Assembly: GCA_001972305.1 (NCBI GenBank)
Contig: BDDD01000437.1
Location: 1-64,000 of the forward strand
Length of the DNA stretch: 64,000 bases
Direction: 5' to 3'
Origin: Cephalotus follicularis
Lineage: Eukaryota > Streptophyta > Magnoliopsida > Oxalidales > Cephalotaceae
In this document: in pieces, positions 2,483-60,690 of the stretch
Layout of the letters: each line of letters starts with the position of its first letter
How positions within the stretch are numbered: position 1 is the stretch's first letter
The notes under the pieces: generated by a model
Seen by the model: the letters and a program-made list of their open reading frames with translations, nothing else
Told to the model about the DNA's origin: nothing
Databases searched by the model: none
Translations under genes and position numbers: made by a program

Positions 2483-3607
2483 TGGAAAAGCACTCTTGCA
2501 ATATACAAGAGGGGGGGTGAATTGAATATTGACGCAAATATAGCAAAATAAAAACTTTTAAAGTAAAAAGTGTAAGGAAAGAAGAATTCTCCGATTTAGA
2601 GTGGTTCGACTAACTTTTGCCTACGTCCACTTTTCCCAAGGGAGCTCCTTGAGTTTCCACTATCTCGAATTGATTACGATAGCAATTCGTTACACCTTAC
2701 AACCTTGGTGATTGAACTCAATCACAAGACCTTGACCTCAAGACCTTAGAGGATTCTCCTCTTTTACAAGTGTTTGTGAATGTGTTTATAAGATAACCTT
2801 TCAATAGGTTTGATTTGGCTTATAATACAGAACACAATTTGAATCACAATGAAAAACTCAAAGGATAGAGCTTTGAAGCTTTTTGGGAACACTATAGAGC
2901 ACTTGAGATTTTTGGAACTAGAATGCTTGAATTGATCTCTCTCTTGTTGTTGTGTTGTTCTTGATAATTCTCTATATTCCTGAAGGTTTGAATATTCCTT
3001 TATATAGACAAAAAAGTCTTTGTAGCCGTTGCATAAATCTTGGGAATTTAAGATATCAAAATGTGTTGATGCAACTCTGTTTTGTGCCTGCTAAGATAAA
3101 GACGTCGATGTCTTTTGAAAGGCGTCGATGTCTTTGACTGTTACTAGCCGTTGCAAGTGGGTTTACTAGCTGTTGATTAATTCCCGGGTCAATCAATTTG
3201 AAAAGACGTCGATGTCTTTTATAGACGTCGATGTCTTTTCTGGGAATGTATCCAGGCATTTGAAGTTATGAGCATCACATCGACTTCTTCTTCAAGGATC
3301 GATGTCTTTTCTGGATTTTGCAGTTGAGTCTAGAAAGACGTCGATGTCTAAGGAAAGGGATCGATGTCTTTTGTTGGACGTCGATGTCTTCACATCCAAG
3401 GATCGATGTCTTCATTCAAAATCGACCTGTAACTTTGGTACCCAAAGACGTCGATGTCTTTTGCAATAGGGATCGATGTCTTTTGGTATGCAACTGTCTT
3501 TTGCCTTTTGCCTTTTGTGATTCTTTCTAACATCTTGCACATTAAGTAAACTTGTTAAATGCAAATATGTTATCATCAAAACTAGGATTGAGACTAAATC
3601 ATCAACA
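2483..3607 (-). repeat. 3' LTR of SIRE-like element
   Basis: About 1.1 kb, starting (minus strand) TGTTGATGATTTAG directly after the polypurine tract. It ends near the 'ttcaattcaccccccctcttg' type block shared with 1-112. A TATA-like ctatataaagg lies at 2996-3006 on the minus strand. It carries the GTCGAT/GTCGAC array at 3105-3495 upstream of that TATA. Confidence 0.75.
3105..3495. repeat. Array of gacgtcgatgtctttt motifs in the SIRE LTR
   Basis: About a dozen copies of a near-palindromic unit, aagacgtcgatgtctttt, with variants such as ggatcgatgtcttt and ggcgtcgatgtcttt, spaced roughly 20 to 60 bases apart. The core GTCGAT is one step from GTCGAC. The array lies in the U3 part of the LTR, upstream of the TATA box. 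Confidence 0.8.
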
Positions 3608-3622
3608 ATCTCCCCCTTTTTG
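3608..3622 (-). other. Polypurine tract of SIRE-like element
   Basis: On the minus strand the run aaaaagggggagat immediately precedes TGTTGATG, the LTR start. This is the usual plus-strand priming site, and the 'aagggggagat' form is common in plant Copia elements. Confidence 0.75.
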
Positions 3623-3760
3623 ATGATGACACAAATTTGCTCAAAAAAGACATAAACATAAGTGATATCAATAAGCATAAATAAGCAATGTTCATAAAAG
3701 GAAAGTTCCATTTGAATGTGCTATTGAGCTCTATCACAATGCAGCTTCATCTCCAATGCT

Positions 3761-3918
3761 TTTGAGCTATTGAGCTCTATCACCATGTTTTTGATTATCT
3801 CCCCCATAATTATAGAATCTAAGCAATATCAATTGAGCTTTTGAGCTATTGAGCTCTATCGCCATGTTTTTAATTATCTCCCCCATAATTATAGAATCTA
3901 AGCAATATCAATTGAGCT
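3761..3918. repeat. Two tandem 79-bp units
   Basis: The block from ttgagctattgagctctatc to gcaatatcaattgagct is present twice in direct tandem with only a few differences (3761-3839 and 3840-3918). It lies in the non-coding 3' internal part of the SIRE-like element, which also has many 'ctccccctt' tracts (3619-4060) that resemble extra polypurine tracts on the minus strand. Confidence 0.8.
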
Positions 3919-4421
3919 ATGCTTTTGAGATCTATCTCCCCCTTTTTTGGATAGCATAAAAAAGAGATGTAATTAGCTCCCCCTTAATAAATGAAAGGAT
4001 AAAGAAAAGCATTTCAATAACATCAATAGAACATAAACAAATAATGCTCCCCCTTACGAAATCAAGATTTGAATACCATAACAAGATATTAGCAATAACA
4101 TTCAAACAATATTTAAACAACCATAATATCAACACCATATATGCCAAACACATTTCATTAGTAAACACTATGTCTTATAACAACAATAAAAATTCAAAAT
4201 TACATAAACAACAATTTTGATTACAACCAAAAACAGCAACACATAGCAATCAAGAATCATGCAGGAGGAGGATTGGAATCTTGAGAAGATTCATCGCCCG
4301 AAGTGTCTTCGCATGCGTTGATAGTCTTGGATGCAGCAAGCTTTCGTTCCAAGCGTTTGAGACGTCTCTTGGTGACATGTAGATCGTAGTAGATAGTATC
4401 TTCGATAGTCTCAAAGTCGGA

Positions 4422-5267
4422 TCAAATGGTCATGTCATCCTTTTCCAAGTTATCGAGGCGCGAGTTCACTTGCTCGAATTTGCCTTCAATTGATGCTTCC
4501 ATCGAATCGAACCTAGTGTTCAAAACATCAAATCGAGCACTCATAAATTCCATCATCCTATCATAATCGCTAGTGGATGATGATCCTTGAACTTGAGCAG
4601 GTGGAGCTTCTTGGGCTTCCCATGGAGGGATTTCTTCATGTTCTTCTTTCTCAATCTTCTGCCCTTGATCACTTTTTGGACAGTAAGTCCAATTTCCATC
4701 TTGCTGCTTCCATCCCATGCGGTTTAGGGTGGTATGGAGCATGAGTAGAGGATAACAAAATTCAATTTTAGATATGATGCACCACATTAGAAATGCTTGC
4801 ATCCGAGAGAGCTTAGCATACCCACCACCGGTAGGAAGGAGTTGATGAACGATAAGGTAATGGAGGAGATGATGATCCACAGAGAGTTTGTTTGTAGAAA
4901 GTGCCATGTTTGGATGTATATTTGGATCATTGGGGTAGAGAATTGACAAGATGTGATTACGGTGAAAACTCTCGACTTCCGGCCATTTTTTGTCCACAAA
5001 GATGTAAATACCGGTATGAGGAATATGTAGAGTAGAAGCGAGGACCCTAACATCTAAGAATATACGTTGTCCTTTAACAGTTGAGGAGAGGGCAAATTCC
5101 TCATGAGGAATAGAAACAATTCTCAAATTCATATAGAATTCCTTGACGAGTTTGACATAGAAAATGTCTTGAATTTGAACAAGTGGAATGAGGTGCAACT
5201 CTTCTAGCCAGGAAACAAAGGAGAATTCATTGGAACACAAAGCTAAGTCTATATTCCTACCTCCCAT
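4422..5267 (-). CDS. Extra ORF of the SIRE-like element (envelope-like position), 281 aa
   Basis: Open frame between RNase H and the 3' LTR, where SIRE elements carry an additional, so-called envelope-like, ORF. The first 190 residues resemble the 'putative plant transposon protein' type of domain (conserved-looking FYMNL near residue 45, then a VKGQRIFLDVR segment, then an HIPHTG loop). Residues about 190-230 are acidic and proline/serine-rich. Residues 235-280 form a likely coiled coil with repeated RFD and LDNLEK heptads. No signal peptide or membrane anchor is evident, so envelope function is not supported. Domain naming is from memory; function unknown. Confidence 0.6.
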   Translation of the reverse strand: MGGRNIDLALCSNEFSFVSWLEELHLIPLVQIQDIFYVKLVKEFYMNLRIVSIPHEEFALSSTVKGQRIFLDVRVLASTLHIPHTGIYIFVDKKWPEVESFHRNHILSILYPNDPNIHPNMALSTNKLSVDHHLLHYLIVHQLLPTGGGYAKLSRMQAFLMWCIISKIEFCYPLLMLHTTLNRMGWKQQDGNWTYCPKSDQGQKIEKEEHEEIPPWEAQEAPPAQVQGSSSTSDYDRMMEFMSARFDVLNTRFDSMEASIEGKFEQVNSRLDNLEKDDMTI

Positions 5268-5644
5268 AACTCTTTTATCAATAAAAGCTACATTTCAGAG
5301 AGGGACTTCTTCTTCGGATTCAGAATCCGATTGAAGAGCGGGGTCGGGAGAAGGTTCCCTAATGTCAAGCTTTCTCTTAGAACCAGTTTTCATAGGTTGA
5401 GAAGAGGTAGTACCTTCTTAAAGCCTGTTGTTTTTGTCCTAGGCATTTTATCAAACAGTTGGTATGCACAACAGAGATTAACAGAGAGTGAGAAAAATAA
5501 TCGGATTGGAAGAGGGAAAGACGATTTTTGGGAACGAAAGATGATGGAGTAGATGTTTTTAGAACGATTAGAACGATTTTTGTTAAAAAATCAGAGAGAA
5601 CTTTTTTTTTTTGAAATGTCCAGTGTAAGGGTAAAGTGAGAGAT

Positions 5645-5905
5645 GAGTATGGAGTCGACGTTTTTATGAAAAAGTCGATAACAGGTAAAAGACGTCGACG
5701 TGATTCCAAAGACGTCGATGCGTTCTTTAAAAAGAACGAAAGGCATCGATTCAGAAAACGCTGCATTTTAAAAGGCATCGACGTGTTTTTAAAGAAGTCG
5801 ACGTGTTTCAGAGAGACTTAAAGAAATCGACATTTTATGAAAGAGGTCGACATTTTTTGCAAAAAATACATCAATGTTTTTGAACAGAAGTCGACGTGAT
5901 TTTAT
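5645..5905. repeat. Second GTCGAC array, internal to the SIRE-like element
   Basis: Between the extra ORF and RNase H lie about ten copies of gtcgacgt(g/t) and variants (gtcgataac, atcgacgtg, gtcgacatt), again 15-40 bases apart. This is outside the LTR, so the same motif class occurs twice in one element, in LTR and in the internal non-coding part. Confidence 0.75.
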
Positions 5906-6008
5906 AAAAAAACAGAAGAATAACAAACAAAAATAGAACAATAACCAAAAATCAATCATTACATAAAAAAAACATACAGTTAATCAAATCATTCAAACAA
6001 ATAAACAT

Positions 6009-6520: not shown

Positions 6521-6539
6521 TTTGGTTTTGATTGAAAGC

Positions 6540-13303: not shown

Positions 13304-13494
13304 TGTTCTCAAATTTTGAAAAGAATTAAATTTATACCGCAAGGGCACGGTTGTGCAGTAACGGGTCGAACGTTGTGAAACAAATTAAATCAATTTTAAT
13401 TTATCCAACCTAGGAGAAGTATGCAAAATTGAGGGTGATTATTAATTTCTACTCTTAAACATGCAAAATAACTAATTGGTAAAGAAAACGTCTG

Positions 13495-13620
13495 AAGAGT
13501 CGACGCTAAAATGCAAGGCATCGACGGTATAATCAAAAGCACTGAAAGTGTCGACGTAACTACGAAATAACAATAAAAGCGTCGACGATATCGAGAGAAT
13601 CGTCGACAGTTAAGCAAACT
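13495..13620. repeat. GTCGAC array near the LTR end (Athila)
   Basis: Six motifs in 120 bases: agtcgacgct, gcatcgacgg, tgtcgacgta, gcgtcgacga, tcgtcgaca and similar. The matching segment of the other LTR (55915-56040) carries the same positions with several CpG-type changes. Confidence 0.8.
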
Positions 13621-13804
13621 GAATCGAAAATAACAGAAATCAAAACATGCAAATAACAGATTAATGAAGCAAGAAATACAGTGAATAAAATACATAAGTT
13701 AAAGTCTGTTTTAGGGTATAGAAACTCACCGTAGATTATATTGAAAAACTCACTTACTTGAATGATCAAACCTTGATAATCAATAGCTGTTAGGTCGATA
13801 CGAA

Positions 13805-13950
13805 GTGTGACTGTGATGACAAATCGTATGAGTAGTCATGCTATGTCTATACAGTGTGTGAGTTGATTGACAAACCTATGAGTAGTCACGCTATGTCTAT
13901 ACGGAGTGTATTCGGTGTGACAAATTGTATGAGTATACATCCATTGATTT
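13805..13950. repeat. Tandem ~57-bp units in Athila LTR
   Basis: Units containing cgtatgagtagtcatgctatg followed by tctatacggagtgtg repeat two to three times with modest divergence, matching 56215-56370 and, inverted, 10330-10475. Confidence 0.8.
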
Positions 13951-14377
13951 CATGCAAGAACCATTCATTCAGCAACTTTCTTCTTCATAGACAAAGTGTA
14001 TGTGGATTTTAATCAGACATACAAAGTATGGGAGATGTCAGAAAATTGAAGAACAAATAAAAAATTCAAAGATTTTTATTAATGGAATTTCATCGATACA
14101 TCTAATGGCTTTGTTCTAACCCTACAAATCTTGAAAGGTTAGCTAGAAAACATAGAATACAAACTATAAAAACTAGAAGAAAGAGGAGGTGGCTGTGTAC
14201 AAGAGTCGACAATCTTGCATATTGTTTTTGTGGCTTTCCTCTTCTATTTTTACTTACAAAACATGCATAAAAAGAACATGAAATAAAGTTTAACATAATT
14301 ATGCTATTTAATGAAAACATTACAATCCATCAGAAACTCTAAAACTTTCCGTTTTCCTACCTGATATGTGCTAAGCG

Positions 14378-14890
14378 TCGACAGGAGTGCGCTAGGCATC
14401 GACGCTTTAAAGTTGGGCGTTGACGCTTTAACATTGTAAAAGCAAACTTCTTCCGCGCTTTAGTGTTAAACGTCGACGCTAACATGCAAGGCGTCGACAC
14501 TTTGAATGTGAAATCAAACTTCCTGGCGTGAAACAACTTGAGGTGTTGGTAATGGGGCCGACTATGAAGTGTAGCAACGGACCAGACTTGGAGTGTTGAG
14601 TAGAGCAAACCATGAAGTGCAAACTAGCGGAGCATTGGTGCAGAGAAGCTCTTAAGCGTTGACGCTGTGACTTTACCCGTCAGCGCTTTACATATAAGCG
14701 TCGACGCTATCATTGAAACCATCGACGCTTTAATTGTAAGCGTCAACGCCTTTCTTGCTACACGTTGACGATTATACCTTCAGTTTAAATTGCACAACTT
14801 TTGGCATTGACGACTTGAAGATGGCGTTGACACCAATAGTTCAAATTTCAGTACGTTAACGCCAATAAGATTGGTGTTGACACCAATATT
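14378..14890. repeat. Main GTCGAC array of the Athila LTR (U3)
   Basis: More than fifteen motifs of the form aagcgtcgacgcttt or its decayed forms (gcgttgacgc, gcgtcaacgc, ggcattgacg, ggtgttgacacc), 20-50 bases apart. It starts about 130 bases inside the LTR and lies upstream of the TATA region. Confidence 0.85.
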
Positions 14891-15012
14891 CCATATATGC
14901 AGAATTTGGCCTGTTTAACCTGAAAATCAATCAAAACAATCGTAGTAATCTATTCCAAGCATAAAAACACAATAAATAAATCCTTAAAAATAATATATTT
15001 TTATGTTAAACA

Positions 15013-18910: not shown

Positions 18911-21289
18911 AACCGCTGCAGCAATAATACTAGGTAAGGCTATAGGATGTGATCATCATCCATCATACACCGGTGTAGAGTGCCTACCTCTGCCTCGAAC
19001 GAGGGGCCGGCATGATCAGTGCACGGACCCAACCATCGTCCGAAAAACCCGCACGCACACTCAACCTCATCCGAGGGACCGCGTGCAATATATATACATA
19101 CATCAGTAACCAAACACAGTCCAATAGGAGGGTAATGGAGCAGCTCTGCTGCACTCACACTCAGCATACCATCATAGACAATAGTATGCTGCAAATCCAG
19201 ATATGGAATCCGAGGGCGGTTCCCACCTAACACCCCATCATAGACCAATGGGCCTGCTAAGTAGAATTGAGCGTCGAACATGTACCTCTGCTTGGACTAG
19301 AAGAACCATAATGCCGGTACCCAGCATCAGAGTATAACACGGTATAACATAACAAGTCACAATGTCATAAGTGTGAGAAGGCGACCAAGTCACCAAGAGC
19401 ATCGAGCACATAACCGCTCGGAATCGCATCATAATCATGAATACGTTAACAGAAGAAAGCCGGGATACAAATCCCAACCAAGATCACATATCACAAGAAA
19501 TCGGGCACATTGGAAAACAACATGACTCTCAAATAAAGAATTGCTCAAAGGCATCAACAACAAAACTCAAATATAAGAATGCGGAAACAAATCAAACTCA
19601 ACAAATCCGGCCCTCAATAGCCATCTCATGATAGAACCACAAAAGAGCACATAGCTCACAAAAAAACTCAAACAAGACGATATGGAGTTAGAATGAATAT
19701 AACAGTGGCAATAGAAACAATATATACACCCGTAGGAGCCAATGCGGATACGATGTCACGAGGTGAAATGAATATATAATCACAAGGACTCATATCAAAG
19801 TAGAAGTTCAAACGAGAATACTCAAAGGATTCCTGAATAACAAACATGTCCTATCAATATGAACATTCAATCGGAATATCAATAGATGGCTCAACGCAAG
19901 CGATTAAGGAATCGATTTCAATAAAGGGTTCAAAGCAAGCGATTATAGACTCAATTCCACAACGGACAATTAACAAGTCCTATCAGAGTTCAATCGAGAA
20001 TGTAAATAAAGGATTCCAAGAAACCATTATGGAATCATATCACAAGCCACATCGTATGATAAAATCAAGCAACGAAGGCCATTAACAAGTATGGGAATCA
20101 ATTCCAAATCAAATTATCAACAAATCAAATGATAGTTACGAATCACAATAATGACACAAAACAATCATTAACGAATTTCAAAATCAAACAAAATAAAGGA
20201 AGGAGATGTTCTACTCACAATATCATAGCCGATACTTCCACGGACTAACCCCGTTAAGCTTTGAACAGGTCGTCGGTTCCCGTCATCATTTCGAAATTCT
20301 ACCATCCTTCATGCTACATAAACATAGCACGTATCGTTACGACGTATTCATAGGAAACATAATCTATCGTAATCGAAACTCCAGCCAACCTGCCGAAGTT
20401 CTGGTGACACCCAAAACTGAGCCTCCATAATTGCTGGTCAACACATTACTGACCGAAACTGACTGTGACTTGCCCGGAATTAGGCAGCCACCGCCGGCAG
20501 TGAGTTGACTCACTGAGTCAACTCGCCGGTCATCCAACAAATATAGCCACTTCACAAAAAAGTCACAAAACGACCTGGTCTACACGTCTCCGCCCAAGAC
20601 TCGCCAAGAATCGGCGGCTGCCGCCATGCCAGAGCTCTGGCCGAGACGCCATTGCTCCGGTCTCACCACCCCTGGCCTCCATAAGGTCCGGTATACGCGT
20701 TGGTGACCGAGACTCACCGGGAATCGCTGCCAAAAGTGGCGGCAGAGGCGGCAGCGAGTCGGCTAGACTCAGTCAACTCAACAGTTAAAAATTCGGCCGA
20801 TTCACGCCCCAACCGCCGTCAAAATGGGAAGGGCTGGTCTTCTAGATGATGATCGGCCCAACCCGCGATGAAAATGGCGGTGAACGGTGGGCAACAGTGA
20901 CGGCTGCGCTCGGAGAGAAGAAGAAAAGGAAAAATAATAAAGGAGGAGAAGGAGATTACCGGTCATGTAGAAGCAGCAGGGGAGCTCGCTGTCATTTTTC
21001 ACGGTCGCCGACGTCTCTCCCTTCTTCTGGAGCCATCTCTCCCGCTCCTGTCTCCTCTCTGTCTCAACCCTCTCTGTCTCTGTTCTCTTCATCCGGGCAT
21101 AGCGCCCGTTACTCTATTTTTCAATTTAAGCCTGGCGCGTCTAGCGACTTCTAGATGCGCCCGGTTGTTTGTTTTTTTTTAATTTATAAATATTAATATA
21201 ATGATAATAATGTTAATATTCTACTTGCATGTTTTGCACGCTCACGAGTTTTGCAAATCAGTCTCGGAAAAGTGACACGAGGTGCCACA

Positions 21290-21294
21290 ACATT
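21290..21294. repeat. Right target-site duplication (acatt) of the solo LTR
   Basis: acatt after GTGCCACA, equal to 17414-17418. Confidence 0.85.
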
Positions 21295-21788
21295 GGGCTT
21301 AAGAAATTGTTTTATTCTCTTTGGGCCGAATTTAGTGATGTTATATAGCAATTGGGCTTTAAAGAGAAAGAGTGAAGAGGGCCTAAATGAGAGGTTGGCC
21401 CAAGGCATGGAGTTGGCCTGTACCCGTAAGAATTGTCTCGACAATTCTGAAACTTTCCTCACATGTGTATAAAAGGCTGTTGGTAGCCATGGGACACACT
21501 TTTGGCTTTATCTTGCACATTTGCTCTAGAGAAATCGAGAGAATGAGAGAATTGGGAGAAGAGGACAAGTTGGGTTCTGTCCAAGTGAGCCCCATGTCCC
21601 CTGCACTCTATTCATATAAACCCATTCCTTGGGAGCAAGGATTGTGCAAGGAAGGAGAATCGGGCAAGCTAAGAGTGTAACAGACTCCAACTTCAAGGAA
21701 ATCCAAAAATTTAGAGGAAAGCAGACGATCTTCGTTTCCAACCATTTCTCCAGGTAGGTTGCTCCATGTCCGAGTGCCTACAAGCTTG

Positions 21789-21804
21789 TGTGTGTGTGTG
21801 TGTA
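21789..21804. repeat. (GT)n microsatellite in element C 5' LTR
   Basis: Alternating GT run after caagctt; the 3' LTR has a longer one at about 28912-28936. Confidence 0.85.
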
Positions 21805-22589
21805 ATTGCTATGTGATTGTATGTTACTTTATTGTTGTTTGTTGTGGGTTTGTATTATTGTTTATTTGATTAGCATAGTAGAATAAGTATAATTGATCCC
21901 TGGATGCCGTGGGAGACACACGTGGTGCGTCCTGGAGCGTGGAGCCACTTATCACGATACTATGCTTCCCTGTTTGTACAAAACAGTAGGCAACACACGT
22001 AGATGCCATACACCGAGCACCTCATCGGCCGACTCCTGAGCTGCTCTCACCACTGGCATACACCGTGCATGCGTCCAGTGCATGCAATACATGGCGTCGG
22101 ACAAACACACCCGACCTTCCACCAAACTCCCACGGTAAGGCGCCCGAGGAGATGGAATGCCAGAGGAGATGTGCTACCGGCGGTGTGATGCCGAGCTCCA
22201 CCTTCATGCCCGAGCATGACAGAGATGCAGTGGTGAAGCGCTAGAGGTGCTGTGGTGGTGCGTTAGAGATGCCAAAGTGATACACCAGGGACGCCACATG
22301 CCAGAGGTGAAATGCCATCCTCTGCTTTGTGCAAACTACAGTGTCTGCCGTGTTTTCCCTACATGCGCCTGAGAAGAAGAAGCAATTAAGTGCATGCATG
22401 CATGCGTCCTTTGCATGTGCATGCCTCAAATAGCACCTAATTCGCATTAGTCCCCTGGCATGCATTGTGAGATGGATATTTGTCTTGCATGCGCCATGCA
22501 TGTAAGTTCAAAGTAGCTCTGCGCAAGGAATGCGCCTAGTTTAATATATGCCCTGGCCAGGCTAAGGAATGAAATAGGAATGGTAAAGG

Positions 22590-22840
22590 AAATATTACTG
22601 TTGTCTCTGCCATGTGAGCCCAACCGGGGAGAATTCCACCGAGCAGGTGAACCCAATGGGTAAACTCCGCAAGGCAGGTGATCTTTGGGCGAATCCACCT
22701 AATAGTGAACCTAAAGGTGAATTTCGCCAGAGCTGGTGATCCAAAGGGTGAACCGTAAGAGCAGGTGAGCAAAGGGCGAATTCTGCTCGGCAGGTGAACC
22801 TGGAGGAGAAGTCCGCGGATAGGTGAACCTTACATACTGA
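22590..22840. repeat. Degenerate ~30-bp repeats with GGTGA(A) core, element C 5' LTR
   Basis: About eight loose units of the form gcaggtgaNccNaNgggtgaattccgcc repeat in tandem. The same array is in the 3' LTR at 30090-30310. Confidence 0.75.
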
Positions 22841-23390
22841 CCAGACCATAGGATGACCCGGACCAGACTCCTCTGTAATGTGATTGATATGTATGGCTTG
22901 AGTAGATTAGTCCGAGGACAATGGATGACTTTTATATTATGGATTGTGGTATGCTTTTATGGTACATATGCATTATACTTTTCTCCTCTACTTTGCATTG
23001 GTTGTTTCTTCTGGTATGTGCCCGTATATGTGGTAACCTACACAACCTCCAGGGTTGCTGACCCATTCCTTTGAATGGGCCAGGTACAGGGACAAGTATT
23101 GGTGGCACATCGCAGCAACATCAAGGATAAAGATATTGTAAGTTTCTCCTCTGCAGTGCGCTTTAATGGATGGATTCTGAAGAAATAAATATGTATTTAT
23201 TTTTTTTACTTGTTGGTTTGTAGCAGAGTATTTTATTTTGAACTGGGTTTGTATATCCACACATTAATTAAACAGTTTATGTTATGATATTAAGTTTTAA
23301 TTTTTTTTATGGTTTATGATTTATGGAATGTACGAATTTCCATGTGTCGGGCCATGGGACCCATCCCACGGTTCAGGGCGTGATAAGTTT

Positions 23391-28291: not shown

Positions 28292-29859
28292 TGTAAGAGC
28301 CCCAAATATTATAAAATATTCTTGTTGGGCTTTGTAATTATTTTCCTTCCTATTGGGCAGGGCCAGGAGTTTATGAAGTATTTATTTGGGCCTTAATGGG
28401 ATATAATTTATGACCTTCGGCTTAAGAAATTGTTTTATTCTCTTTGGGCCGAATTTAGTGATGGTATATAGCAATTGGGCTTTAAAGAGAAAGAGTGAAG
28501 AGGGCCCAAATGAGAGGTTGGCCTAAGGCATGGAGTTGGCCTTCACCCGTAAGAATTATCTCAACAATTATGGAACTTTCCTCACATGTGTATAAAAGGC
28601 TGCTGGTAGCCATGGGACACACTTTTGGCTTTATCTTACACATTTGCTCTAGAGAAATCGAGAGAATGAGAGAATTGGGAGAAGAGGACAAGTTGGGTGC
28701 TGTCCAAGTGAGCCCCATGTCCCATGCACTCTATACATATAAACCCATTCCCTGGGAGCAAGGATTGTGTAAGGAAGGAGAATTGGGCAAGCTAAGAGTG
28801 TAACAGACCCCAACTTCAAGGAAATCCTGAATTTAAGAGGAAAGCGGGCGATCTTCGTTTCCAACCATTTATCCAGGGAGGTTGCTCCATGTCCGAGTGC
28901 CTACCAGCTTGTGTGTGTGTGTGTGTGTGTGTGTGCAATTGCTGTGTATTTGTATGTTACTTTATTGTTGTTTGTTGTGGGTTTGTATTATTGTTTAATA
29001 TATTAGCATAGTAGAATAAGTATAATTGATCCCTGGATGCCGTGGGAGACACACGTGGTGCGTCCTGGAGCGTGGAGCCACTTATCACGATACTGTGCTT
29101 CCCTGTTTGTACAAAACAGTAGGCAACGCACGTAGATGCCATATGAAAAGATGCCATGACAGAGCCTGGGTTCCCATGGCCATGCATCCAAGTGTGGTGA
29201 CACATCGAGCACCTCACCGCCCGACTCCCGAGCTGCTCTCACCACCGACATACACCGTGCATGTGTCTAGTGCATGCAATACATGGCGTCGGGCAAACAC
29301 ACCCGACCTACCACCAAACTCCCATGGCAAGGCGCCCGAGGAGATGGAGTGCCAGAGGAGATGTGCTATCGGGGGTGAGATGCCGAGCTCTACCTTCATG
29401 CCTGAGCAGCCATCCCCGAGCTCCACTACCATGCCCGAGCAGCCATGCCGAGCTCCATAGCCATGCCGGGGTGCCACTGCTATATGCCCTTGGTACCGTG
29501 CTGAGGTGCCTAGCTCTCCCCTACAATGGTGCCTGAGGTGGAAAGGTGCTAAGCAGACATGACAGAGGCACCGAGCATCCATGGCTAAACTATCTGAGCT
29601 CACCAACGCATGCGTGTCCCCTGACATAGCTCTTCCTTGGCGTCCCGTGCATGCCACCATAGCTCTCCACTACCCCTTGCATGTGTCTCGAGCATGACAG
29701 AGGTGCAGTGGTGTAGTGCCAGAGGTGCTGTGGTTGTGCGTTAGAGATGCCGAACTGATACACCAGGGACGCCACACGCCAGAGGTGAAACGCCATCCTC
29801 TGCTTTGTGCGAACTACAGTGTCTGGCATGTTTTCCCTACATGTGCCCGAGAAAAAGAA

Positions 29860-29985
29860 GAAATTAAGTGCATGCATGCATGCGTCCTTTGCATGTGCAT
29901 GCCCCAAATAACACCTAATTCGCATTAGTCCCCTGGCAGGCGTTGTGAGATGGATATTTGTCTTGCATGCGCCATGCATGTAAGT
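29860..29985. repeat. CATGCA (RY-type) cluster in element C LTR
   Basis: gtgcatgcatgcatgcgtcc and following tgcatgtgcatgcc and cttgcatgcgccatgcatg pack many catgca steps into about 120 bases. A matching cluster is at 22390-22505. RY elements bind B3-domain regulators in plants; use here is inference. Confidence 0.7.
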
Positions 29986-30089
29986 TCAACGTAGCTTTGC
30001 GCAAGGAATGTGCCTAGTTTAATATATGCCCTGGTCAGGCTAAGGAATGAAATAGGAATGGTAAAGGAAATATTACTGTTGTCCCTGGT

Positions 30090-30860: not shown

Positions 30861-30865
30861 AAAAT
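30861..30865. repeat. Right target-site duplication (aaaat) of element C
   Basis: Equal to 17288-17292. Confidence 0.85.
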
Positions 30866-41372: not shown

Positions 41373-42049
41373 CTTGTTGGGAACACTCATCCCGAGTGCA
41401 GCGGAAGACTTTATAATTCGGTCTTAGGGGTTAAGGGCCGATTAACTTTAAAATTCTCTCAATTGGTTAATCCCAAAGCAATGGGATGCCCTAACCTGAG
41501 TCTAAAAGGTACCAATAAATGCCAAGGAACATCTAATCAACATCCAATTAAACCAAAACCATAAACCTAAGCATTGGGCAGAACGGGTTGATGAAGCTAG
41601 GGTTTCCATAAACCCTACAGTTGGACACTAACAATGGCTCACAAGGTATAACACACAAAAACCCTAGGTACAGCCCAATCAACCCTCACCCACATCATCC
41701 CTAACCGTTAGAGATGACACACAAAGATACATAAGGGAACCATGGAGGTTTTGGTAAGGGTTTCACACACCCACATCAAGACCCACTGCCATGATGCCAC
41801 AAGAGGGGGAAGAAACGAATTCTTACCAGAGGTGAAGACTCCTTCCTTTAAGAAAGCTCCCTCTACACTTTGTCCTAAAAACCCCAACCTCCTCCAAGCG
41901 AATCCTCAAGCCACGTATGAGGAGGATGAAGGCCAAGGGTTTAAACCTAGTCTAAATCACTCTAGGTAAAGATAAGAAGCTGTGTGTAAGTTATGTCCAC
42001 CTATTATAACATTTGAGTGGTGAAAGGAGGCTTGAAAATTGTTACTTTA

Positions 42050-42353
42050 ACGCACCAGGCGACACAGGCGTCGACGCATAGGGGATAGGCGTCGACGAGT
42101 ACGAGAGCAGGTACAACAGATCGCATGGGATGGAAGAGAGAGAAAGAAATAGTCAAAGTTGTGTGTTCAACAAGTTTCTCTCAAACTGTTTATAGTGCTG
42201 ACTTTCTCTCCTCTTGGTGTCAACGTGTAGGAAAGGCGTCGACGTGTACGCGTCTCACATTACGAAATGGCTTCAACGCCAGAGATAATATGAAACTGGT
42301 GCGTAGTGTAATTTATCCTCGCGTCAATGCCAAAACCCCATGGTGTCAACGTG
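42050..42353. repeat. GTCGAC array, first block of the Angela 5' LTR
   Basis: ggcgtcgacgcat, ggcgtcgacgag, ggtgtcaacgtg, ggcgtcgacgtgt, gcttcaacgcc, gcgtcaatgcc and ggtgtcaacgtg. It retains more intact GTCGAC cores than the 3' LTR copy; the array continues at 52083-52290. Confidence 0.8.
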
Positions 42354-42358
42354 TAAAG
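42354..42358. repeat. Left target-site duplication (taaag) of Tekay-like element B
   Basis: taaag before TGTAACGACCCC, repeated at 52078-52082. Confidence 0.87.
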
Positions 42359-43720: not shown

Positions 43721-44124
43721 CAATCTGCTGTATAATTTTGAATCAAAACAGAGGAAGCTTTAACATGAATGGGTATAGAATTTCCTTACTTTGCTTTAAA
43801 ATTTCTTTCTCTTTTGTTCTCCCACGAATTCTCCACTTCACTCTCAGCAGGAGCACTTTCTTTCTCAGCCAAAATGACTGAGTTCAACCATCTTTTCCAT
43901 TAAATAGAAGGATTACTTGGGAGACAAGTCTTCTCCTCTTCTCACACAACTCAACTCTCTCTCTTGGCAGCCCATGTGGTCAAATTCAACCAATCCAAGT
44001 GATGAAAGTTGTTTAGTCATCTGATAACATCTCATATCATCCTCCCCTGGCCTGCCACGTGTCCAAAATTAAAGATTTTCACTCACAAAATGCCAAAAAG
44101 TCAGATTTTGCATTTTGTTTGTAG

Positions 44125-44350
44125 CTCAATGCGTCGACGTTTTCTCCATAAGCGCCGCCAGTCACGGGCTTGACCTGAGTTCTCCACTTCTATCCCGACT
44201 AAAGCACTGACGCTTTCTTACCAAGCATCACCTCTTTAAGTCTTCGTCCAAGTCAACTGACACACTTGACTTCAACGCGTCGACGTTTAAAATTAGAGCG
44301 TCGTCCGTTGCCCAAAGCGTCGACTCTTTCAATAAAACCGTCGGCGCTTT
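44125..44350. repeat. GTCGAC array in element B LTR
   Basis: gcgtcgacgttt twice, gcgtcgactctt, gcgtcgtccg, gcgccgccagt, ccgtcggcgcttt and agcactgacgctttc within about 225 bases. Counterpart at 51575-51800. Confidence 0.75.
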
Positions 44351-44437
44351 AGACATCTTTGTCAACTCTTAACCTTTTAGATTGGCGCTTTCAACATGAA
44401 ATTCATCCAAAACAAATAACCAATTTCAATTTTCTTC

Positions 44438-49799: not shown

Positions 49800-52077
49800 T
49801 GTAACGACCTCGACCCGAGCTCGCTAATAGCTCAAACCGAACTTCGAGGATCTGTTGCGTTACGTTGGGTGTGAAACGTTACATCCTTTGGTACACTTCT
49901 CTAAAAGTACATTACAACATGAACTCATATCTTGAAACATACATAATCTTAAATTCAAACTTTACACATAATTATCTAATACTAAGATGTCATAACCATA
50001 TCGTTGGTCTACATATACACAGGATCATTCTTCTACATAAACATATATTACAGCGGAAAAACTTTATTCTTATTACATATCAAAACATTAATGCAAACAT
50101 CTTTGCATAGCCTTTCTTTCACAAAAACTCCTTCTTAAGAGCTTCCTCTAAACTCGTAATCTCCATTCATTCATTTCCTGAAAACATTTTATTTGAAAAT
50201 AACATTGAAAGGAATGAGCTCAAAATAGCTCAGTAAGGTGTTTTTATAGTAAACACATTTCATCATAACATTTTTCTAGTCAATACATATAACTAGAACA
50301 TTTCGTAAAGCATATCACTTTTCTAATTACAAACTCGTAACTAGAACATTTCATAAATGTAGAAGTCATAAAAACCTTAATGAACCCTTTACATCTCTTC
50401 ACCGGGGCATTGTGCGCTCCCCAACTACTATCCTTACATCACATGCATGTCCATGAGTATCTCGCTCCATTAAAATTGAGCATCTCGCTCCATTCCCCTT
50501 GGATCGTAATCCAAGGGCGGTTCATTCATCATTTACTTTGAGTGATCATCTCAAAACATTCATAAAAATTATTTCATAACATTTCTTTCACAATTCATAA
50601 ACTTTTCTCTTCATTTGAGTTATTGATTCAAATGAGTTCATAAACATAGTTTTGCATAGCTTTGCTAAAACTGATAATTCATATAGAAATAACCATTTTC
50701 AGATAAAACTTAAAACATAAACATTAAATTAGTCCTCTTTAAGAATTCATAAAGCTCAAGATCATAACAATTGGTTGAGAATTGAATCCGTTATGAATTT
50801 TTGAAAGTGGCTGGTTCCATAAGAAAACAGGGCATGAGCAGTAAAATGAAACATCAATTCACATCAAGAATTAAACAGAATTTAGAGAATCATAAAACAT
50901 AACAATTAAAGAGGACATCTTAAGGTTTTTAAAACATCAAACCATTTAATTTTTCATTAATAATCGAGCAAGATATGATTTAAAGAATTTGCTGCATAAT
51001 CCAGGAATAAAACAGTACCCGAACAGCAATATAAAACATTGATTTTCATCAAGAAATCGATAGAATATTGAAACATGCAAAGCATAAAAGTTGAAGAGGA
51101 CATCCTAACATTTCCAGAACATCCAACCATTAAAAAATTCATAAATAATTGAACAAGATATCAATAGAACAATCTGTTACATAATTTTGAATCAAAACAG
51201 AGGAAGCTTTAACATAAATGCGTATAAAATTTCCTTACTTTGCTTTAAAATTTCTTTCTCTTTTGTTCTCCCATGAATTCTCCACTTCACTCTCAGCAGG
51301 AGCACTTTCTTTCTCAGCCAAAATGACTAAGTTCAACCCTCTTTGCCATTAAATAGAAGGATTACTTGGGAGGCAAGTCCTCTCCCCTTCTCACACAACT
51401 CAACTCTTTCTCTTGGCAGCCCATGTGCTCAAATTCAACCAATCCAAGTGATGACACTTGTTAGATCATCGGATAACATCTCATATCATCCTCCCCTGGC
51501 CTGCCATGTATCCAAAATTAAAGATTTTCACTCACAAAATGCCAAAAAGTCAGATTTTACATTTTGTCTACAGCTCAATGCGTCGACGTGTTCTCCCTAA
51601 GCGTCGTCGATCACGGGCTTGACCTGAGTTCTCCACTTCTATCCCAATTAAAGCGCTGATACTTTCTTACAAATCGTCGCCACTTTAAGTCTTCGTCTAG
51701 GTCAACTGACACACTTGCCTTCAATGCGTCGACGTTTAAAATTAGAGCGTCTTCCGTTGCCCAAAGCGTCGACTCTTTCGATAAAACCGTCGGCGCTTTA
51801 GACATCTTTGTCAACTCTTAACCTTTTAGAATGGCACTTTCAACATGTCATTCATCCAAAACAAATAACCAATTTCAATTTTCTTCCAGGGGAGCTGCCT
51901 CCGAGACCCTACCCGCTGACTGGGCAGTGGGACCCCCCGTCCGCTCACCGGGGAGCGAAACCCCCGAACCCCCCGAGCGTAGGGTTATACTACGGGTCCC
52001 TTGAACTATTTGCCAATTTACACAATAGCAAAAATTTTCCATAATTAATATCTTACATGGAAATTTGGGTCATTACA
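49800..52077 (-). repeat. 5' LTR of element B
   Basis: Begins TGTAACGACCTC on the plus strand and ends GGTCATTACA, with all internal blocks of the other LTR (tandem pair near 50455, GTCGAC array 51575-51800, GC block 51888-51985). Confidence 0.88.
51575..51800. repeat. GTCGAC array, element B 5' LTR
   Basis: gcgtcgacgtgt, gcgtcgtcgat, gcgctgatac, gcgtcgacgttt, gcgtcgactctt and ccgtcggcgctt; same order as 44125-44350. Confidence 0.75.
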
Positions 52078-52082
52078 TAAAG
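52078..52082. repeat. Right target-site duplication (taaag) of element B
   Basis: Equal to 42354-42358. Confidence 0.87.
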
Positions 52083-52290
52083 CCCATGGTTTTTCTAGCA
52101 TTAATGCAATGCTCTCCATAGCTTTAACGCCCAGCGGACTTTCTAGTTTAGACGTTGACGTGATGCCCTCTTGGCGTCGACGTGTAAAGCTACTAGTTTT
52201 TTCAGTGTTAGCGCAATGCCTTTGTGTCAACGCCCAATAGCCCAACAAGACATAGGCGTCAACGCATACCCATAGCGTCAACGCCAAAGA
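52083..52290. repeat. GTCGAC array, second block of the Angela 5' LTR
   Basis: gacgttgacgtg, ggcgtcgacgtg, gtgtcaacgccc, ggcgtcaacgc, gcgtcaacgcc; continues the array of 42050-42353. Confidence 0.75.
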
Positions 52291-53594
52291 CAAAGAACAT
52301 TCTCTTCTCATTTCCAGAAAATCCTTCGCATGGAATATTTCATCGTGGCATTGAACATACCTAAATCCATGCAAATGAAATACTCACTAGACAGACAACA
52401 TCTTCCCTGATGTTGTCCTTTCACTAAATGATATGTGTCCCACCACATATCAACCTGTTCAAAGTCAGGCAGGACCCGAAAGCATGTCGTTCTCCGGTAT
52501 GATGATAAATTCCCAGTGCACCCCGTCATCTGGTATGAGCATTCTAACAGTACACCGACTATCAGAGCACCCCCGGTGTGAGCGCCAGCCACCCCCGGAT
52601 CCGTGTATTACCATGTCTATAAATCATGGTCCGAATAGCCATTCGCTTTATCCAGTCATCGGCATATGTGTCATGTTTCCCTTGTCATATATGACCTCAA
52701 TCACAGCGTAGGGTTTGGATGAATGTCACCCTTAGTAGTTCTGTGATAGTTATGAATCTATGATCGCACTGAGACTATCGGCGGACCTCCCACGGGAACC
52801 TCTAGTTCCCAGTCCACCTATGCCTGATTAGGACTTTTAAGTCTGCAATGTACATAGACAAAGAGAGCCGGTCACCCTCTGCCCGGGTGTGACGATCCCA
52901 TCTTGCGCACTCGCCCATACATCTCAATGCAGCTCCCACAAGACCCAAAGACAACCCTTTTGCCAGCACCTGGCTACTGCTGGGGAATGCGAAAATCAAA
53001 TTCAAGCAGTCACCACACAATGTGTGCCAGCCGCTTAGGTCAAAGGAGACAACACAGGCTATAGACCTACTAGTCACCATAGACTATACACTACCGAGAC
53101 CATAGGAATCCTATTGACATTGGGTATAGACTATCCAAATAGGTTTTCTATTGGTGGGTCAGTCCAGTGTCCTGCTCTCTAGCATACACCTCACATTCAG
53201 CTTTAGGGATTACCCCAATTGGCTACTAGATAACCAACCTCCACTGCTAACCCGGTAGTAAGCTTTACGTGACAAGTCTTCACGGTTCATCAATGGCCCT
53301 TAAGAAAGTGAACCTATGACTTGGAACATTTGTCACAGGTAATAAGGATCTTATTCTCATAGCCCTCTCGGCAAGAGATCCAACCCTTTGAACATGACAT
53401 GACGCTATTATGGCATAAAGTTAATTACGTATAATTATTCTGTTCCTTTTGGTTGGTTAGGATGAGCCGCATATCCTTGCCAATATATAAAGATGCACAT
53501 AGAATATAAAAGGAATTCAGAATTATATTAAATTAAGAGTGTTTACACGGAAACGAGTCATATCGTGGCATACAGGGACACCCCTAATCCAACA

Positions 53595-55764: not shown

Positions 55765-55914
55765 TTGTTCACAAATTTTGAAATGAATTAAATTTTTACC
55801 ACAAATGCATGGTTAAATAAATTTTAATTTATCCAACCTAGGCGAAGTATGCAAATTTGAGGGTGATTATTAATTTCTACACTTAAACATGCAAAATAAC
55901 TAACTAGTAAAGAA

Positions 55915-56040
55915 AACGTCTTAAGCGTCGACGCTTAAATGGAAGCCGTTGACGGTATAATCAAAAGCACTGAAAGCGTCGACATAACTATGACATAACA
56001 CTAAAAGCGTTGATGCTATCGAGAGAAGCACTGATGGTTA
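55915..56040. repeat. GTCGAC array near the LTR end, with an 18-bp perfect palindrome
   Basis: ttaagcgtcgacgcttaa at 55921-55938 is a perfect 18-base palindrome. It is followed by gccgttgacgg, gcgtcgacata, gcgttgatgc and gcactgatgg. Confidence 0.85.
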
Positions 56041-56214
56041 AGCAAACTGAATAAAATATAACAGAAATCAAAGCATGCAAATAAGAGATTAACGAAGCAA
56101 GAAATATAGTGAATAAAATACGTCCGTTAAAATCAGTTTTAGGGTATAGAAACTCACCATAGATTATATTGAAAAATTCACTTACTTGAATGATTAAACC
56201 TTGGTAATCAATAG

Positions 56215-56370: not shown

Positions 56371-56779
56371 CATTGATTTCGTGCAAGCACCATTCATTCA
56401 GAAACTTTCTTCTTCACAGACAAAGTGTATGTGGATTTTAATCAGACATACAAAGTGTGACAAATCAAAAATTCAAGGATTTTTATTAATGGAGTTTCAT
56501 CAATACATCTAATGGCTTTCTCTTAACCCTAAAAACCTTGAAATGTTAGCTAGAAAACATTGAATAAAAACTATAAAAACTAGAAGAAAGAGGAGGCGGT
56601 TGTGTACAAGAGTCGAATATCTTGTATATTGTTTTTGTGTCCTTCCTCTTCTATTTATACTTACAAAACATTCATAAAAAGAAAAGGAAATAAAGTTTAA
56701 CCTAATTATGCTATCTAATGAAAATATTACAATCTGTTAGAAACTCTAAAACTTTCCATTTTTGCTGCCTGATACGTGC

Positions 56780-57270
56780 TAAGTGTCGATAGGAATGCGC
56801 TAGGCGTCGACGCTTTAAAATTGGGCATTGACGCTTTAACATTGTAAAAGCAAACTTGTTCCGCGCTTTAGTGTTAAGCGTCGGCGCTAACATGCAAGGT
56901 GTCAACGCTTTGAATGTAAAATAAAACTTCTTGGCGTGAAACAGACTTGAGGTGTTGGTAATGGGGCAGACTATGAAGTGCAGTAGCGGACTAAACTTGG
57001 AGTGTTGGGTAGAGCAAACCATGAAGTGAAAACTAGCGGGCATTGATACAGAGAAGCTCTTAAGCATCGATGCTATGAATTTAACCGTCAGCGCTTTACA
57101 TATAAGTGTCGACGTTATCATTGAAACCATCAGTGCTTTAATTATAACCGTCGATGCCTTTGTTGCTAAACGTTCAGGATTATACCTTCTACCTAAATTG
57201 CACAACTTTTGGCATTGACGCCAAAAGTTCAACTTTCAGTACGGTAATGCCAATAAGATTGGTGTCAACG
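56780..57270. repeat. Main GTCGAC array of the Athila 5' LTR (U3)
   Basis: Same order of motifs as 14378-14890: agtgtcgatagg, ggcgtcgacgct, ggcattgacgct, gcgtcggcgct, ggtgtcaacgct, agcatcgatgct, gtgtcgacgtt and others, ending in 'ggtgtcaacgccaata'. Confidence 0.82.
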
Positions 57271-57400
57271 CCAATAATCCATATATGCAGAATTTGGCCT
57301 GTTTAACCTGAAAATCAAACAAAACAATCGTAATAATCTATTCGAAGCATAAAAACACAATAAATAAATCCTCAAAAACAACATATGTTTATGCTAAACA

Positions 57401-58900: not shown

Positions 58901-59329
58901 AATTAAGATGAATTCTGAGAAGATTAAAGCCGTAAACGAAATGAAGGCACCGTCAAATATAAAAGAAATTCAAAGGCTTAATGGTCTCTTGTAGGCCCTA
59001 AGTTGATTCATTTTGAAGTCAGCGGATCATTGTCTATCGTTATTCAAGAAACTTAAGGCGGTTAAAGCCTTTGAATGGATGTTGGATTGTCAGAAAGCGT
59101 TTGAAGAATTGAAAGCATATCAGACGTCACCATCGTTAATCACAAAACAAAACCCAGGGGAAGTTTTGCTGCTATACTTGTTGACCTCGGACACCACTAT
59201 TAGCTCAACGCTAGTCCGATAAGAAGAGAGAGTACAAAAGCCGAAGTGTTATGTAAGTAAAGTGTTGGGCAAGCATAAGGCCCGATATCCCCTTATTTAG
59301 AAATTGGCCTTTGCATTTGTAGTTTCAGC

Positions 59330-59700
59330 AAGAAAATTAAGACCCTAATTTCAGGCCCATAGTGTTAATATGATGACAGACCAGCCCCTTCTAAAATTCC
59401 TTCAAAGGCCGGACACCTCAGGAAGGATGGTCAAATGGGAAATTGAACTGGGGGAGTTCAACATTCATTACAAGCCTCGGCCAGCGATGAAGTCTCAAGT
59501 GATAGCGGACTTTCTGGTGGAATGCACTAGTTCAGTTAAAATGGAATAAGAAGAAGAGAAGCGGGCCCCAAAGACCACTACGAGATGGACCCTATATGTA
59601 GATGGGTCCTCGTGTCAGCAAGGGGTTGGGGCGGGATTAATGTTGGTAAGTCCAGATGGATGGACCTTGGAGTATGCCCTTCAAATCTCCGTTACCAAAC
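59330..59700 (+). pseudogene. RNase H part of the Tat-like element
   Basis: Connection domain with TDQPLLKFLQRPDTSGRMVK, WEIELGEFNIHYKPRPAMKS and VIADFLVECTSS, then LYVDGSSCQQGVGAGLMLVS, the extra (archaeal-type) RNase H start found in Tat elements. Interrupted by the LTR starting near 59704. Confidence 0.75.
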
Positions 59701-59703
59701 AGG

Positions 59704-59845
59704 TGACTGTTTGGGGAAAACAGGCGACTGTTTGGGGAAAACAGTCGACTGGAAAATTCATAAAGGGGACAGTCGACTATTAGAGAAAATAGTCGATTGG
59801 TCAACTCATGAAGGAACAGTCAACTATCTAAGAAAGCAGTCAAAT
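59704..59845. repeat. AGTCGACT array at the start of element E LTR
   Basis: Two 22-bp tandem units (tgactgtttggggaaaacag, then cgactgtttggggaaaacag) lead into acagtcgactgg, acagtcgactatt, atagtcgattgg, acagtcaactat and gcagtcaaatgg. Confidence 0.8.
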
Positions 59846-60574
59846 GGTAGAGTTCAGACAGGAAAGTAATACGTGTTGCTTGAAATAGAGCAATGGCGTG
59901 AGTCATTGGGACAGGTGTTGCATTGCGGGAATTGACGAGGAAACGTGGTAAAAACGTGTCACTAGCTGCTTACAATGGATGAATTAGTGTCTTCAGCCTT
60001 TGTAACCTGCAAGAAGAAACAAAACAGTGAGTGAAAGATATATAGAAGAAAAGGATGAGAATTTGAGTTAGAGGGTTAAAAAGATTAATGAATACGGGAT
60101 TCCTTTATAACAGATGTTAGAGGGAGTTGAAATGAGGGTTACAACGTTGAAAGGAGGAAAATTCGTCTACTGTTATAGGATTGCATGCTGAAAGTGGAAT
60201 GTTCAAAGTGGAGTTGGAAGCTTAAAAATTAACTAGTAAGCTTCTGATTCGAAATTAGTGTTGATATTATAGTTAATCAGTTATGTATAGCCACTGATTT
60301 CATTCTATATATCTACTGTTAACTTGCAACCGTAGCTTGAATTCTGGAATTGTGAAGTTTGATTGGAGTTGAAGGAGTGTTCAGCTATAAAGAGACGAAT
60401 CAATCCAAATTGATTCTGGGATAGTGAATTGAGGTAGGGATTATGACATGTTTTTGAACATATAGCATGTATTTCGTGTTATGATGATTTATTTATGATT
60501 GCATGTTGAATTGGAACGAATTGAAGTGTGGGAAAGCATGCTCTATTTTATGTTTATTATGTGAACTGATATTC

Positions 60575-60690
60575 TGGGAAAAATAGTCGACTATTCAAGG
60601 TAAACAGCCGACTAATCAAGAGGAATAGTCTACTGTGCAAGAAAACAACCAACTTATCAAGGAAACAGTCGACTGTTAAGGGAAATTTTT
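60575..60690. repeat. Second AGTCGACT array in element E LTR
   Basis: atagtcgactatt, acagccgactaat, atagtctactgt, acaaccaactta and aacagtcgactgtt (perfect 14-base palindrome near 60665-60680), spaced about 22 bases apart. Confidence 0.82.

What the first reader, a model, noticed from the sequence alone, without database searches (positions are those of the whole stretch)
3105..60690. GTCGAC-core palindrome arrays shared by five unrelated LTR-element families
Clusters of short palindromes centred on GTCGAC (or one-step variants) occur in the SIRE-like Copia (3105-3495, 5645-5905), the Athila-like Gypsy (13495-13620, 14378-14890, 55915-56040, 56780-57270), the Angela-like Copia (34110-34635, 42050-42353, 52083-52290), Tekay-like element B (44125-44350, 51575-51800) and Gypsy E (59704-59845, 60575-60690). 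The LTRs are otherwise not alignable with one another, and Copia and Gypsy are deeply separate. Most arrays lie in U3 upstream of the likely TATA box. A shared host factor (activator, repressor or silencing machinery) or motif exchange between elements could explain this. I know of no described system of this kind.
Basis: partly seen in the sequence, partly recalled or inferred. Interest (0 to 1): 0.8.

Follow-up and report, generated by a model that had tools for sequence, protein, structure and literature searches.

The report
Shared palindrome arrays in retrotransposon promoters
Several distantly related plant jumping genes in one stretch of DNA carry clusters of the same short mirror-image sequence, several of them just ahead of their start switches and spaced by whole turns of the DNA helix, which suggests that one DNA-binding protein reads them; arrays of this general kind are already known from one group of these elements.

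Summary
The arrays are real. GTCGAC occurs 36 times against 5.5 expected; 32 of 36 lie in the named arrays, 6% of the window. Masked at the sites, the LTR families do not align. The sharing exceeds six bases: a model trained on four families finds sites in the held-out one for SIRE, Athila, Angela and Tekay B (3, 21, 8, 8) with 0 at that cut-off in about 47 kb of other DNA, but 0 for Gypsy E. The pooled site is roughly aaaNCGTCGACGNttt. Spacing is helically phased: 85 of 98 site pairs fall at whole turns of 10.3 bp (SIRE 41/44, Athila 27/27, E 4/11). In SIRE, Athila and Angela the arrays lie upstream of a TATA-like box; SIRE has a second array before its env-position ORF. That is the layout of the Sirevirus repeated motifs of Bousios 2010, so the kind is known; what is unusual is one site in Copia and Gypsy lineages. 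Best reading: promoter-proximal sites for a dimeric, probably host, DNA-binding protein; a CBF/DREB factor is one candidate. In integrated copies the cores decay like other LTR DNA. The genome-wide test got no answer.

The parts
3090..3500 (-). SIRE-like Copia, U3 array in the 3'LTR: 13 sites, consensus AAAGACATCGACGTCTTT; no exact GTCGAC
   Evidence: sites, arms 34 of 52 complementary; LTR positions 129-497, TATA-like box at 600, another at 383 inside the array
5640..5910 (-). SIRE-like Copia, second array between pol and the ORF in env position: 10 sites, 5 exact GTCGAC
   Evidence: arms not significantly complementary (14 of 40, p=0.20)
4425..5294 (-). ORF in env position of the SIRE-like element, downstream of the second array; Pfam PF20167 (putative plant transposon protein)
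   Evidence: E=3.9e-12; whether it is an env gene was not tested
13310..15011 (-). Athila-like Gypsy 3'LTR (end approximate)
14370..14900 (-). Athila-like U3 array (3'LTR), 14 sites
13480..13630 (-). Athila-like array near the LTR 3' end (U5), 5 sites; absent from a related LTR fragment at 10201-10840
56770..57280 (-). Athila-like U3 array (5'LTR), 8 sites; TATAAATAG about 130 bp downstream
55900..56050 (-). Athila-like U5 array (5'LTR), 3 sites by the pattern used
34100..34640 (-). Angela-like Copia array (3'LTR), 10 sites, most decayed to GTTGAC/GTTAAC/GTCAAC; CTATAAATAG at LTR position 1677, two strict-pattern sites below it
42040..42358 (-). Angela-like array, part of the 5'LTR on one side of the Tekay B insertion, 5 sites
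52078..52300 (-). Angela-like array, other part of the 5'LTR, 5 sites
44110..44400 (-). Tekay-like element B array (3'LTR), 6 sites, 3 exact
51560..51850 (-). Tekay-like element B array (5'LTR), 7 sites, 3 exact
59690..59860 (+). Gypsy E array 1, 5 sites, arms AAACA/TGTTT; not phased and not found by the other families' model
60570..60700 (+). Gypsy E array 2, 3 sites by the pattern used
21274..23386 (+). Element C 5'LTR, negative control: no GTCGAC; TATA-like box at position 195
28397..30861 (+). Element C 3'LTR (start approximate), negative control: no GTCGAC

Best explanation
The arrays are cis-regulatory clusters of binding sites for a sequence-specific DNA-binding protein that acts as a dimer, most likely one encoded by the host plant. 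The site is a palindrome of about 16 bp (roughly aaaNCGTCGACGNttt). Copies are set at whole helical turns so that dimers line up on one face of the DNA ahead of the element's promoter, and in the SIRE-like element also ahead of the downstream ORF. In function this is the Sirevirus repeated-motif architecture. Four families of three or four lineages, Copia and Gypsy, carry the same site, by convergence on one factor or by exchange of short array segments; Gypsy E shares only the core and may be separate. Shown here: enrichment, clustering, palindromic arms, shared extended motif, phasing, position. Inferred: a protein, its dimeric state, its host origin, and that it activates rather than represses. 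A CBF/DREB-type AP2 factor is a candidate for the core only.
For: Enrichment and clustering. Palindromic arms that differ between families but pair within sites. Flank identity between families 0.330 vs 0.263 (sd 0.005) at random LTR positions, 0 of 300. Leave-one-family-out model, cut-off 12: SIRE 3, Athila 21, Angela 8, Tekay B 8 sites in the held-out LTRs/linker, 0 in about 47 kb of background. Spacing: best period 10.3 bp over 122 pairs, 0 of 5000 jittered sets, 0 of 500 for the maximum over periods 8-14; still 0 of 3000 when any one family is dropped and when only pairs over 25 bp apart are used; 85 of 98 pairs at whole turns, odd multiples (3, 5, 7 turns) included. Position upstream of TATA-like boxes in SIRE, Athila 5'LTR, Angela. 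GTCGAC is listed in PLACE as the preferred sequence of barley HvCBF2, RYCGAC as CBF1/CBF2 site (PMC4222965, passage).
Against: Phasing is weak in Angela (30 of 2000), not significant in Tekay B (210 of 2000) and absent in E (615 of 2000; 4 of 11 pairs at whole turns). The jitter null does not model growth by tandem duplication, which could copy one phase. E is not found by the other families' model (0 at cut-offs 10 and 12). At cut-off 8 background hits are as many or more for some families (Tekay B 11 vs 18). Integrated copies show no protection: core CpG changes 34/121 vs 94/319 elsewhere, and core non-CpG changes are higher, 16/143 vs 346/5325. TATA boxes of Tekay B and E are unclear, the Athila 3'LTR copy has none by the pattern, and SIRE has a second TATA-like string inside its array. 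A CBF monomer does not need the arms. No expression, binding or genome-wide data.
Confidence: 0.5

Rival explanations
1. RNA or hairpin function: the palindromes matter as foldback structure in the transcript, feeding small-RNA production and silencing, as proposed for maize Sireviruses.
For: Array transcripts fold better than dinucleotide shuffles: z from -1.1 to -9.2 over 10 arrays, against -2.3 to +1.2 in 6 control stretches. Maize: small RNAs map in excess to palindrome clusters (PMC10760457 and PMC5311732, passages).
Against: Any array of palindromes folds well, whatever it is for. Helical spacing and a common core are not needed for folding. U3 upstream of the start site is transcribed only from the other LTR or by read-through. 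Athila U5 (-1.7) and Athila 5'LTR U3 (-1.1) fold little better than shuffles.
Confidence: 0.2
2. Passive repeat growth: arrays arose by slippage or template switching in reverse transcription from a few seed palindromes and have no function; similar cores are coincidence or recombination between elements.
For: Family-specific arms, within-family flank identity 0.482 vs 0.330 between families, point to local amplification; Tandem Repeats Finder reports units of 20-22 bp in all five families' arrays or parts of them. A related Athila LTR fragment lacks the U5 array although it aligns on both sides.
Against: The same extended site in four families that otherwise do not align; odd as well as even numbers of helical turns between sites in both SIRE and Athila; repeated placement upstream of TATA-like boxes.
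Confidence: 0.2
3. Exchange of a short array segment between elements (recombination or template switching) rather than convergence.
For: The best Athila-Tekay B match is a 37-bp stretch with two units and the spacer, score 119 against a shuffle maximum of 96.
Against: Most of that stretch is the shared arms and core; other family pairs show no such stretch, and masked alignments are at shuffle level.
Confidence: 0.15
4. A TE-encoded anti-silencing factor of the VANC type binds the arrays in trans.
For: VANC targets are tandem arrays of short motifs in non-coding regions (PMC10398659 passages, PMC5735166 abstract); the SIRE-like element has an extra ORF.
Against: CpGs in the cores decay like other LTR CpGs, so there is no trace of lasting hypomethylation in these copies. 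No VANC-like gene was looked for; VANC specificity differs between families, here it would be shared.
Confidence: 0.05

Closest known systems
Sirevirus repeated motifs (RMs), Bousios et al. 2010, PMC2829016
   Same: Palindromic, at least 8 copies per element, clustered in the LTR upstream of a TATA box and again in the linker upstream of the env gene; one listed RM (Vitis, CGGTCGACCG) contains GTCGAC and one (Tnd-1, ACAATCGATTGT) has a TCGA centre (sections and table seen)
   Different: Published core is CGG-CCG and the motif is called Sirevirus-specific among Ty1/copia elements; here the core is GTCGAC and it also occurs in another Copia family and in Gypsy families. Helical phasing was not seen in the passages read.
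Maize Sirevirus LTR palindromes as small-RNA hotspots (Bousios et al. 2016; paper not held, seen through PMC10760457 and PMC5311732)
   Same: Palindrome clusters in the regulatory part of LTRs with predicted secondary structure; the maize palindrome is also the top motif of structured Helitron regions, a precedent for sharing across superfamilies
   Different: Other motif (CACCGGACNNNGTCCGGTG), other host; no small-RNA data here
CRT/DRE element GTCGAC, preferred by barley HvCBF2 (PLACE entry quoted in PMC4222965)
   Same: Identical 6-bp core; GCCGAC/GTCGGC, also RYCGAC, is 7.9 times denser in arrays (5 in, 9 out)
   Different: No known need for long palindromic arms; binding in this host not tested; GGCGAC/GTCGCC, not RYCGAC, is just as raised (4 in, 5 out)
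VANC target arrays in Arabidopsis VANDAL transposons
   Same: Short motif arrays in non-coding regions of transposons that diverge between families
   Different: DNA transposons with their own VANC gene and family-specific motifs; not palindromes in the passages read

Membership tests
Sirevirus RM boxes (SIRE-like element) | Palindromic motif with dyad symmetry | tested here: met
   U3 array arms 34 of 52 complementary, p=1.3e-9; linker array 14 of 40, p=0.20
Sirevirus RM boxes (SIRE-like element) | At least 8 copies per element | tested here: met
   13 in the LTR and 10 in the linker by the broad pattern
Sirevirus RM boxes (SIRE-like element) | Clustered in the upper LTR, starting 200-400 bp after the PPT/LTR junction, upstream of a TATA box | tested here: met
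   Sites at LTR 129-497, TATA-like box at 600; starts somewhat earlier than the published range
Sirevirus RM boxes (SIRE-like element) | Further copies upstream of the env gene | tested here: inconclusive
   Array 5640-5910 precedes an ORF in env position (PF20167); that it is env was not shown
Sirevirus RM boxes (SIRE-like element) | CGG-CCG core | tested here: not met
   Core is RTCGAY; the published Tnd-1 motif lacks CGG-CCG too
Sirevirus RM boxes (Angela-like, Athila-like, Tekay B) | Host element is a Sirevirus | tested here: not met
Athila-like and Tekay B have Gypsy gag/pol domains.
CRT/DRE (CBF/DREB) sites | Core RYCGAC | tested here: met
   GTCGAC and ATCGAC forms dominate the arrays
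CRT/DRE (CBF/DREB) sites | Bound by a CBF/DREB protein and cold or drought responsive | not testable with these tools
   Needs binding or expression data
VANC target arrays | Element encodes a VANC-type binding protein | not tested
   No VANC model was searched

The most novel reading that the evidence does not exclude
One host DNA-binding dimer reads a common 16-bp palindrome in the promoters of both Copia and Gypsy retrotransposons, which have each built helically phased arrays of it: a shared regulatory code of unrelated retrotransposons in one plant genome, which would switch many families on or off together.
Probability: 0.3. Interest if true: 0.8.

Novelty: new variant of a known kind. 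Interest (0 to 1): 0.55.

Why it matters
The factor that reads Sirevirus palindromes is, as far as the passages read here say, unknown. A site shared by several families gives a defined 16-bp bait and a spacing rule (10.3 bp) to find it, and would explain how unrelated retrotransposons could be co-activated or co-silenced. If the factor is of the CBF/DREB type, it would tie bursts of several families to cold or drought.

Tried and rejected
So density in other LTRs of this genome is untested.

Cross-species test in viral contigs: 42 stretches with one AAGCGTCGACGCTT each, taken as chance hits in other DNA and not read further; no relative of the Angela-like pol piece there. Protein search with that piece: 706 matches, 120 listed, best identity 61%, names mostly of dicots such as Hibiscus and Malus; it did not name the host.

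One segmental copy behind all arrays: rejected. Unmethylated CpG island or protection of the sites in integrated copies: no sign. Element C's GCATGC cluster as a parallel case: partly a GCAT microsatellite, and its sites lie below the TATA-like box, so not pursued. The lenient alignment was replaced by a stricter one because its alignments ran through most of the LTRs.

Papers: ten searches. None of the listings showed GTCGAC arrays shared by Copia and Gypsy LTRs; the library is open-access only, and the 2016 maize paper is not held.
Full report
What is there. The window is a nest of plant LTR retrotransposons. Domains by Pfam: a SIRE-like Copia element (Pol_BBD, gag_pre-integrs, rve, SH3, RVT_2) with an extra ORF; an Angela-like Copia element; an Athila-like Gypsy (Retrotrans_gag beside its 5'LTR); Gypsy elements B (gag, RVP_2, RVT_1, SH3_Tf2-1), C (RVP_2, H2C2, a weak chromodomain) and E (gag, RVP_2). 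LTR pairs come, junctions: the Angela-like element has the target duplication ATGCT and lies in the Athila-like one; B has CTTTA and lies inside the Angela LTR array. B, C and E are relatives (62-65% over long stretches).

Is it more than chance. GTCGAC: 36 found, 5.5 expected from trinucleotides; CGTCGA/TCGACG is the top 6-mer (69 vs 8.5). Of the one-step variants, those denser in arrays than outside are ATCGAC/GTCGAT (20 in, 19 out), GTTGAC/GTCAAC (26, 27), GGCGAC (4, 5), GCCGAC (5, 9) and GACGAC (3, 8); four others are near 1-fold or absent. Tested per region against 1000 shuffles, SIRE linker, Athila, Tekay B and E have exact copies at 0/1000; the SIRE LTR reaches 0/1000 only with one-step forms; Angela is weak (207/1000 exact, 23/1000 with decay forms). 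Among the 64 six-base palindromes, GTCGAC is the most over-represented; for close neighbours it has 17 vs 1.6 expected, AAATTT 19 vs 3.5, GCATGC 12 vs 1.0.

Sharing beyond the core. Sites were picked by a core pattern in element orientation. Family consensuses: SIRE AAAGACATCGACGTCTTT; Athila about AAGCGTCGACGCTT; Tekay B about AAGAGTCGACGCATT; Angela GCGTTGACGCC; E AAACAGTCGACT. Flanks are more alike within families (0.482) than between (0.330; 0 of 2000 label shuffles), and between families more alike than at random LTR places (0.263, sd 0.005; 0 of 300) over 76 sites. Family-averaged, A prevails at -8 to -6, C at -4, G at +4 and T at +7 and +8. Leave-one-family-out scan, held-out LTR/linker vs non-LTR background of about 47 kb (element C's LTRs included): cut-off 12, SIRE 3 vs 0, Athila 21 vs 0, Angela 8 vs 0, Tekay B 8 vs 0, E 0 vs 0; cut-off 10, 6 vs 4, 30 vs 1, 11 vs 1, 8 vs 3, 0 vs 2; cut-off 8, 11 vs 10, 34 vs 15, 16 vs 12, 11 vs 18, 1 vs 13. 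Both LTRs of an element are counted, so these are not independent sites. E is the odd one out.

Phasing. With one LTR per family, distances between sites up to 100 bp have their best period at 10.3 bp (122 pairs); 0 of 5000 sets jittered by up to 5 bp do as well at 10.5, and 0 of 500 when any period from 8 to 14 may be chosen. Dropping any one family, or keeping only pairs over 25 bp, leaves 0 of 3000. In bins of about 5 bp, 85 of 98 pairs up to 78 bp are at whole turns and 13 between: SIRE 41 and 3, Athila 27 and 0, Angela 8 and 1, Tekay B 5 and 2, E 4 and 7. By family the jitter test gives SIRE 0/2000, Athila 0/2000, Angela 30/2000, Tekay B 210/2000, E 615/2000. Odd multiples (about 31, 51 and 72 bp) are filled, so this is not only a 21-bp tandem unit. 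The caveat is that tandem growth could copy one phase; that two unrelated families have the same phase is what argues for selection.

Position. In element orientation: SIRE sites 129-497, TATA-like box at 600 (another such string at 383); Athila 5'LTR U3 sites 133-612, TATAAATAG at 743, plus sites at 1419-1470; the Athila 3'LTR copy has no such box there; Angela strict-pattern sites 813 and 1364-1647, CTATAAATAG at 1677, two sites below it; Tekay B sites 263-491 (one more at 1017), no clear box nearby; E unclear. Element C has its box at 195 and no array.

Turnover and decay. A related Athila LTR fragment (10201-10840, 500 of 625 aligned bases identical) runs through the U5 region but largely lacks the array segment there, so arrays come and go as modules. 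Between LTR pairs, CpGs in cores changed in 34 of 121 columns, elsewhere in 94 of 319; non-CpG core columns 16 of 143, elsewhere 346 of 5325. So inserted copies are not protected; many GTTGAC, GTCAAC and ATCGAC forms are what CpG decay would give. Any selection must act in the replicating lineage.

Rival: structure. Array RNA folds better than shuffles (z: -6.9, -3.9, -3.6, -1.1, -1.7, -4.8, -2.1, -4.7, -9.2, -3.7; six controls -0.04, -2.3, -1.2, -0.4, +0.2, +1.2). That follows from palindromes in any case; it leaves the small-RNA reading open.

Known relatives. Bousios 2010 (PMC2829016; sections 9 and 11 and passages read) describes palindromic repeated motifs in 13 Sireviruses, in the LTR upstream of the TATA box and upstream of env, with a CGG-CCG core except Tnd-1, and absent from other Ty1/copia elements; no test of Gypsy elements appeared in what I read. 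The SIRE-like element matches in layout but not in the CGG-CCG core. In maize the Sirevirus palindrome is also the top motif of structured Helitron regions (PMC10760457 passages), so sharing across superfamilies has a precedent. PLACE, as quoted in PMC4222965 (passage), gives GTCGAC as HvCBF2's preferred sequence.

Verdict. A real feature of a known kind, extended: a common, longer palindrome in Copia and Gypsy LTRs with helical phasing. Most likely a promoter-proximal array for a host DNA-binding dimer (0.5). The genome-wide and binding tests are missing.

Noticed in passing
22067-22487 and 29272-29965 (element C LTRs): Cluster of GCATGC/CATGCA (8 GCATGC in each LTR), partly a GCAT microsatellite; also resembles the RY element of seed promoters (recalled).
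   Followed up: partly
13804-13935, 56222-56369, 10323-10472: Athila-like LTRs carry a second tandem repeat of about 50 bp, three copies or fewer, in the transcribed part of the LTR.
   Followed up: no
42354-42358 and 52078-52082: Element B inserted inside the palindrome array of the Angela-like LTR, next to a site (5-bp duplication); fits reports, seen only as listing and abstract start (PMC6911290), that LTR retrotransposons often target palindromes.
   Followed up: partly
4425-5294 (-): The SIRE-like element's ORF in env position matches PF20167 and, below cut-off, the HSBP1 coiled coil.
   Followed up: no
44440-44530: Very G+C-rich stretch with runs of C in the otherwise A+T-rich LTR of element B, just above the array in element orientation.
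   Followed up: no
10201-10840 (+): Fragment of a second Athila-like LTR subfamily, inverted relative to the main one, without the U5 array.
   Followed up: yes
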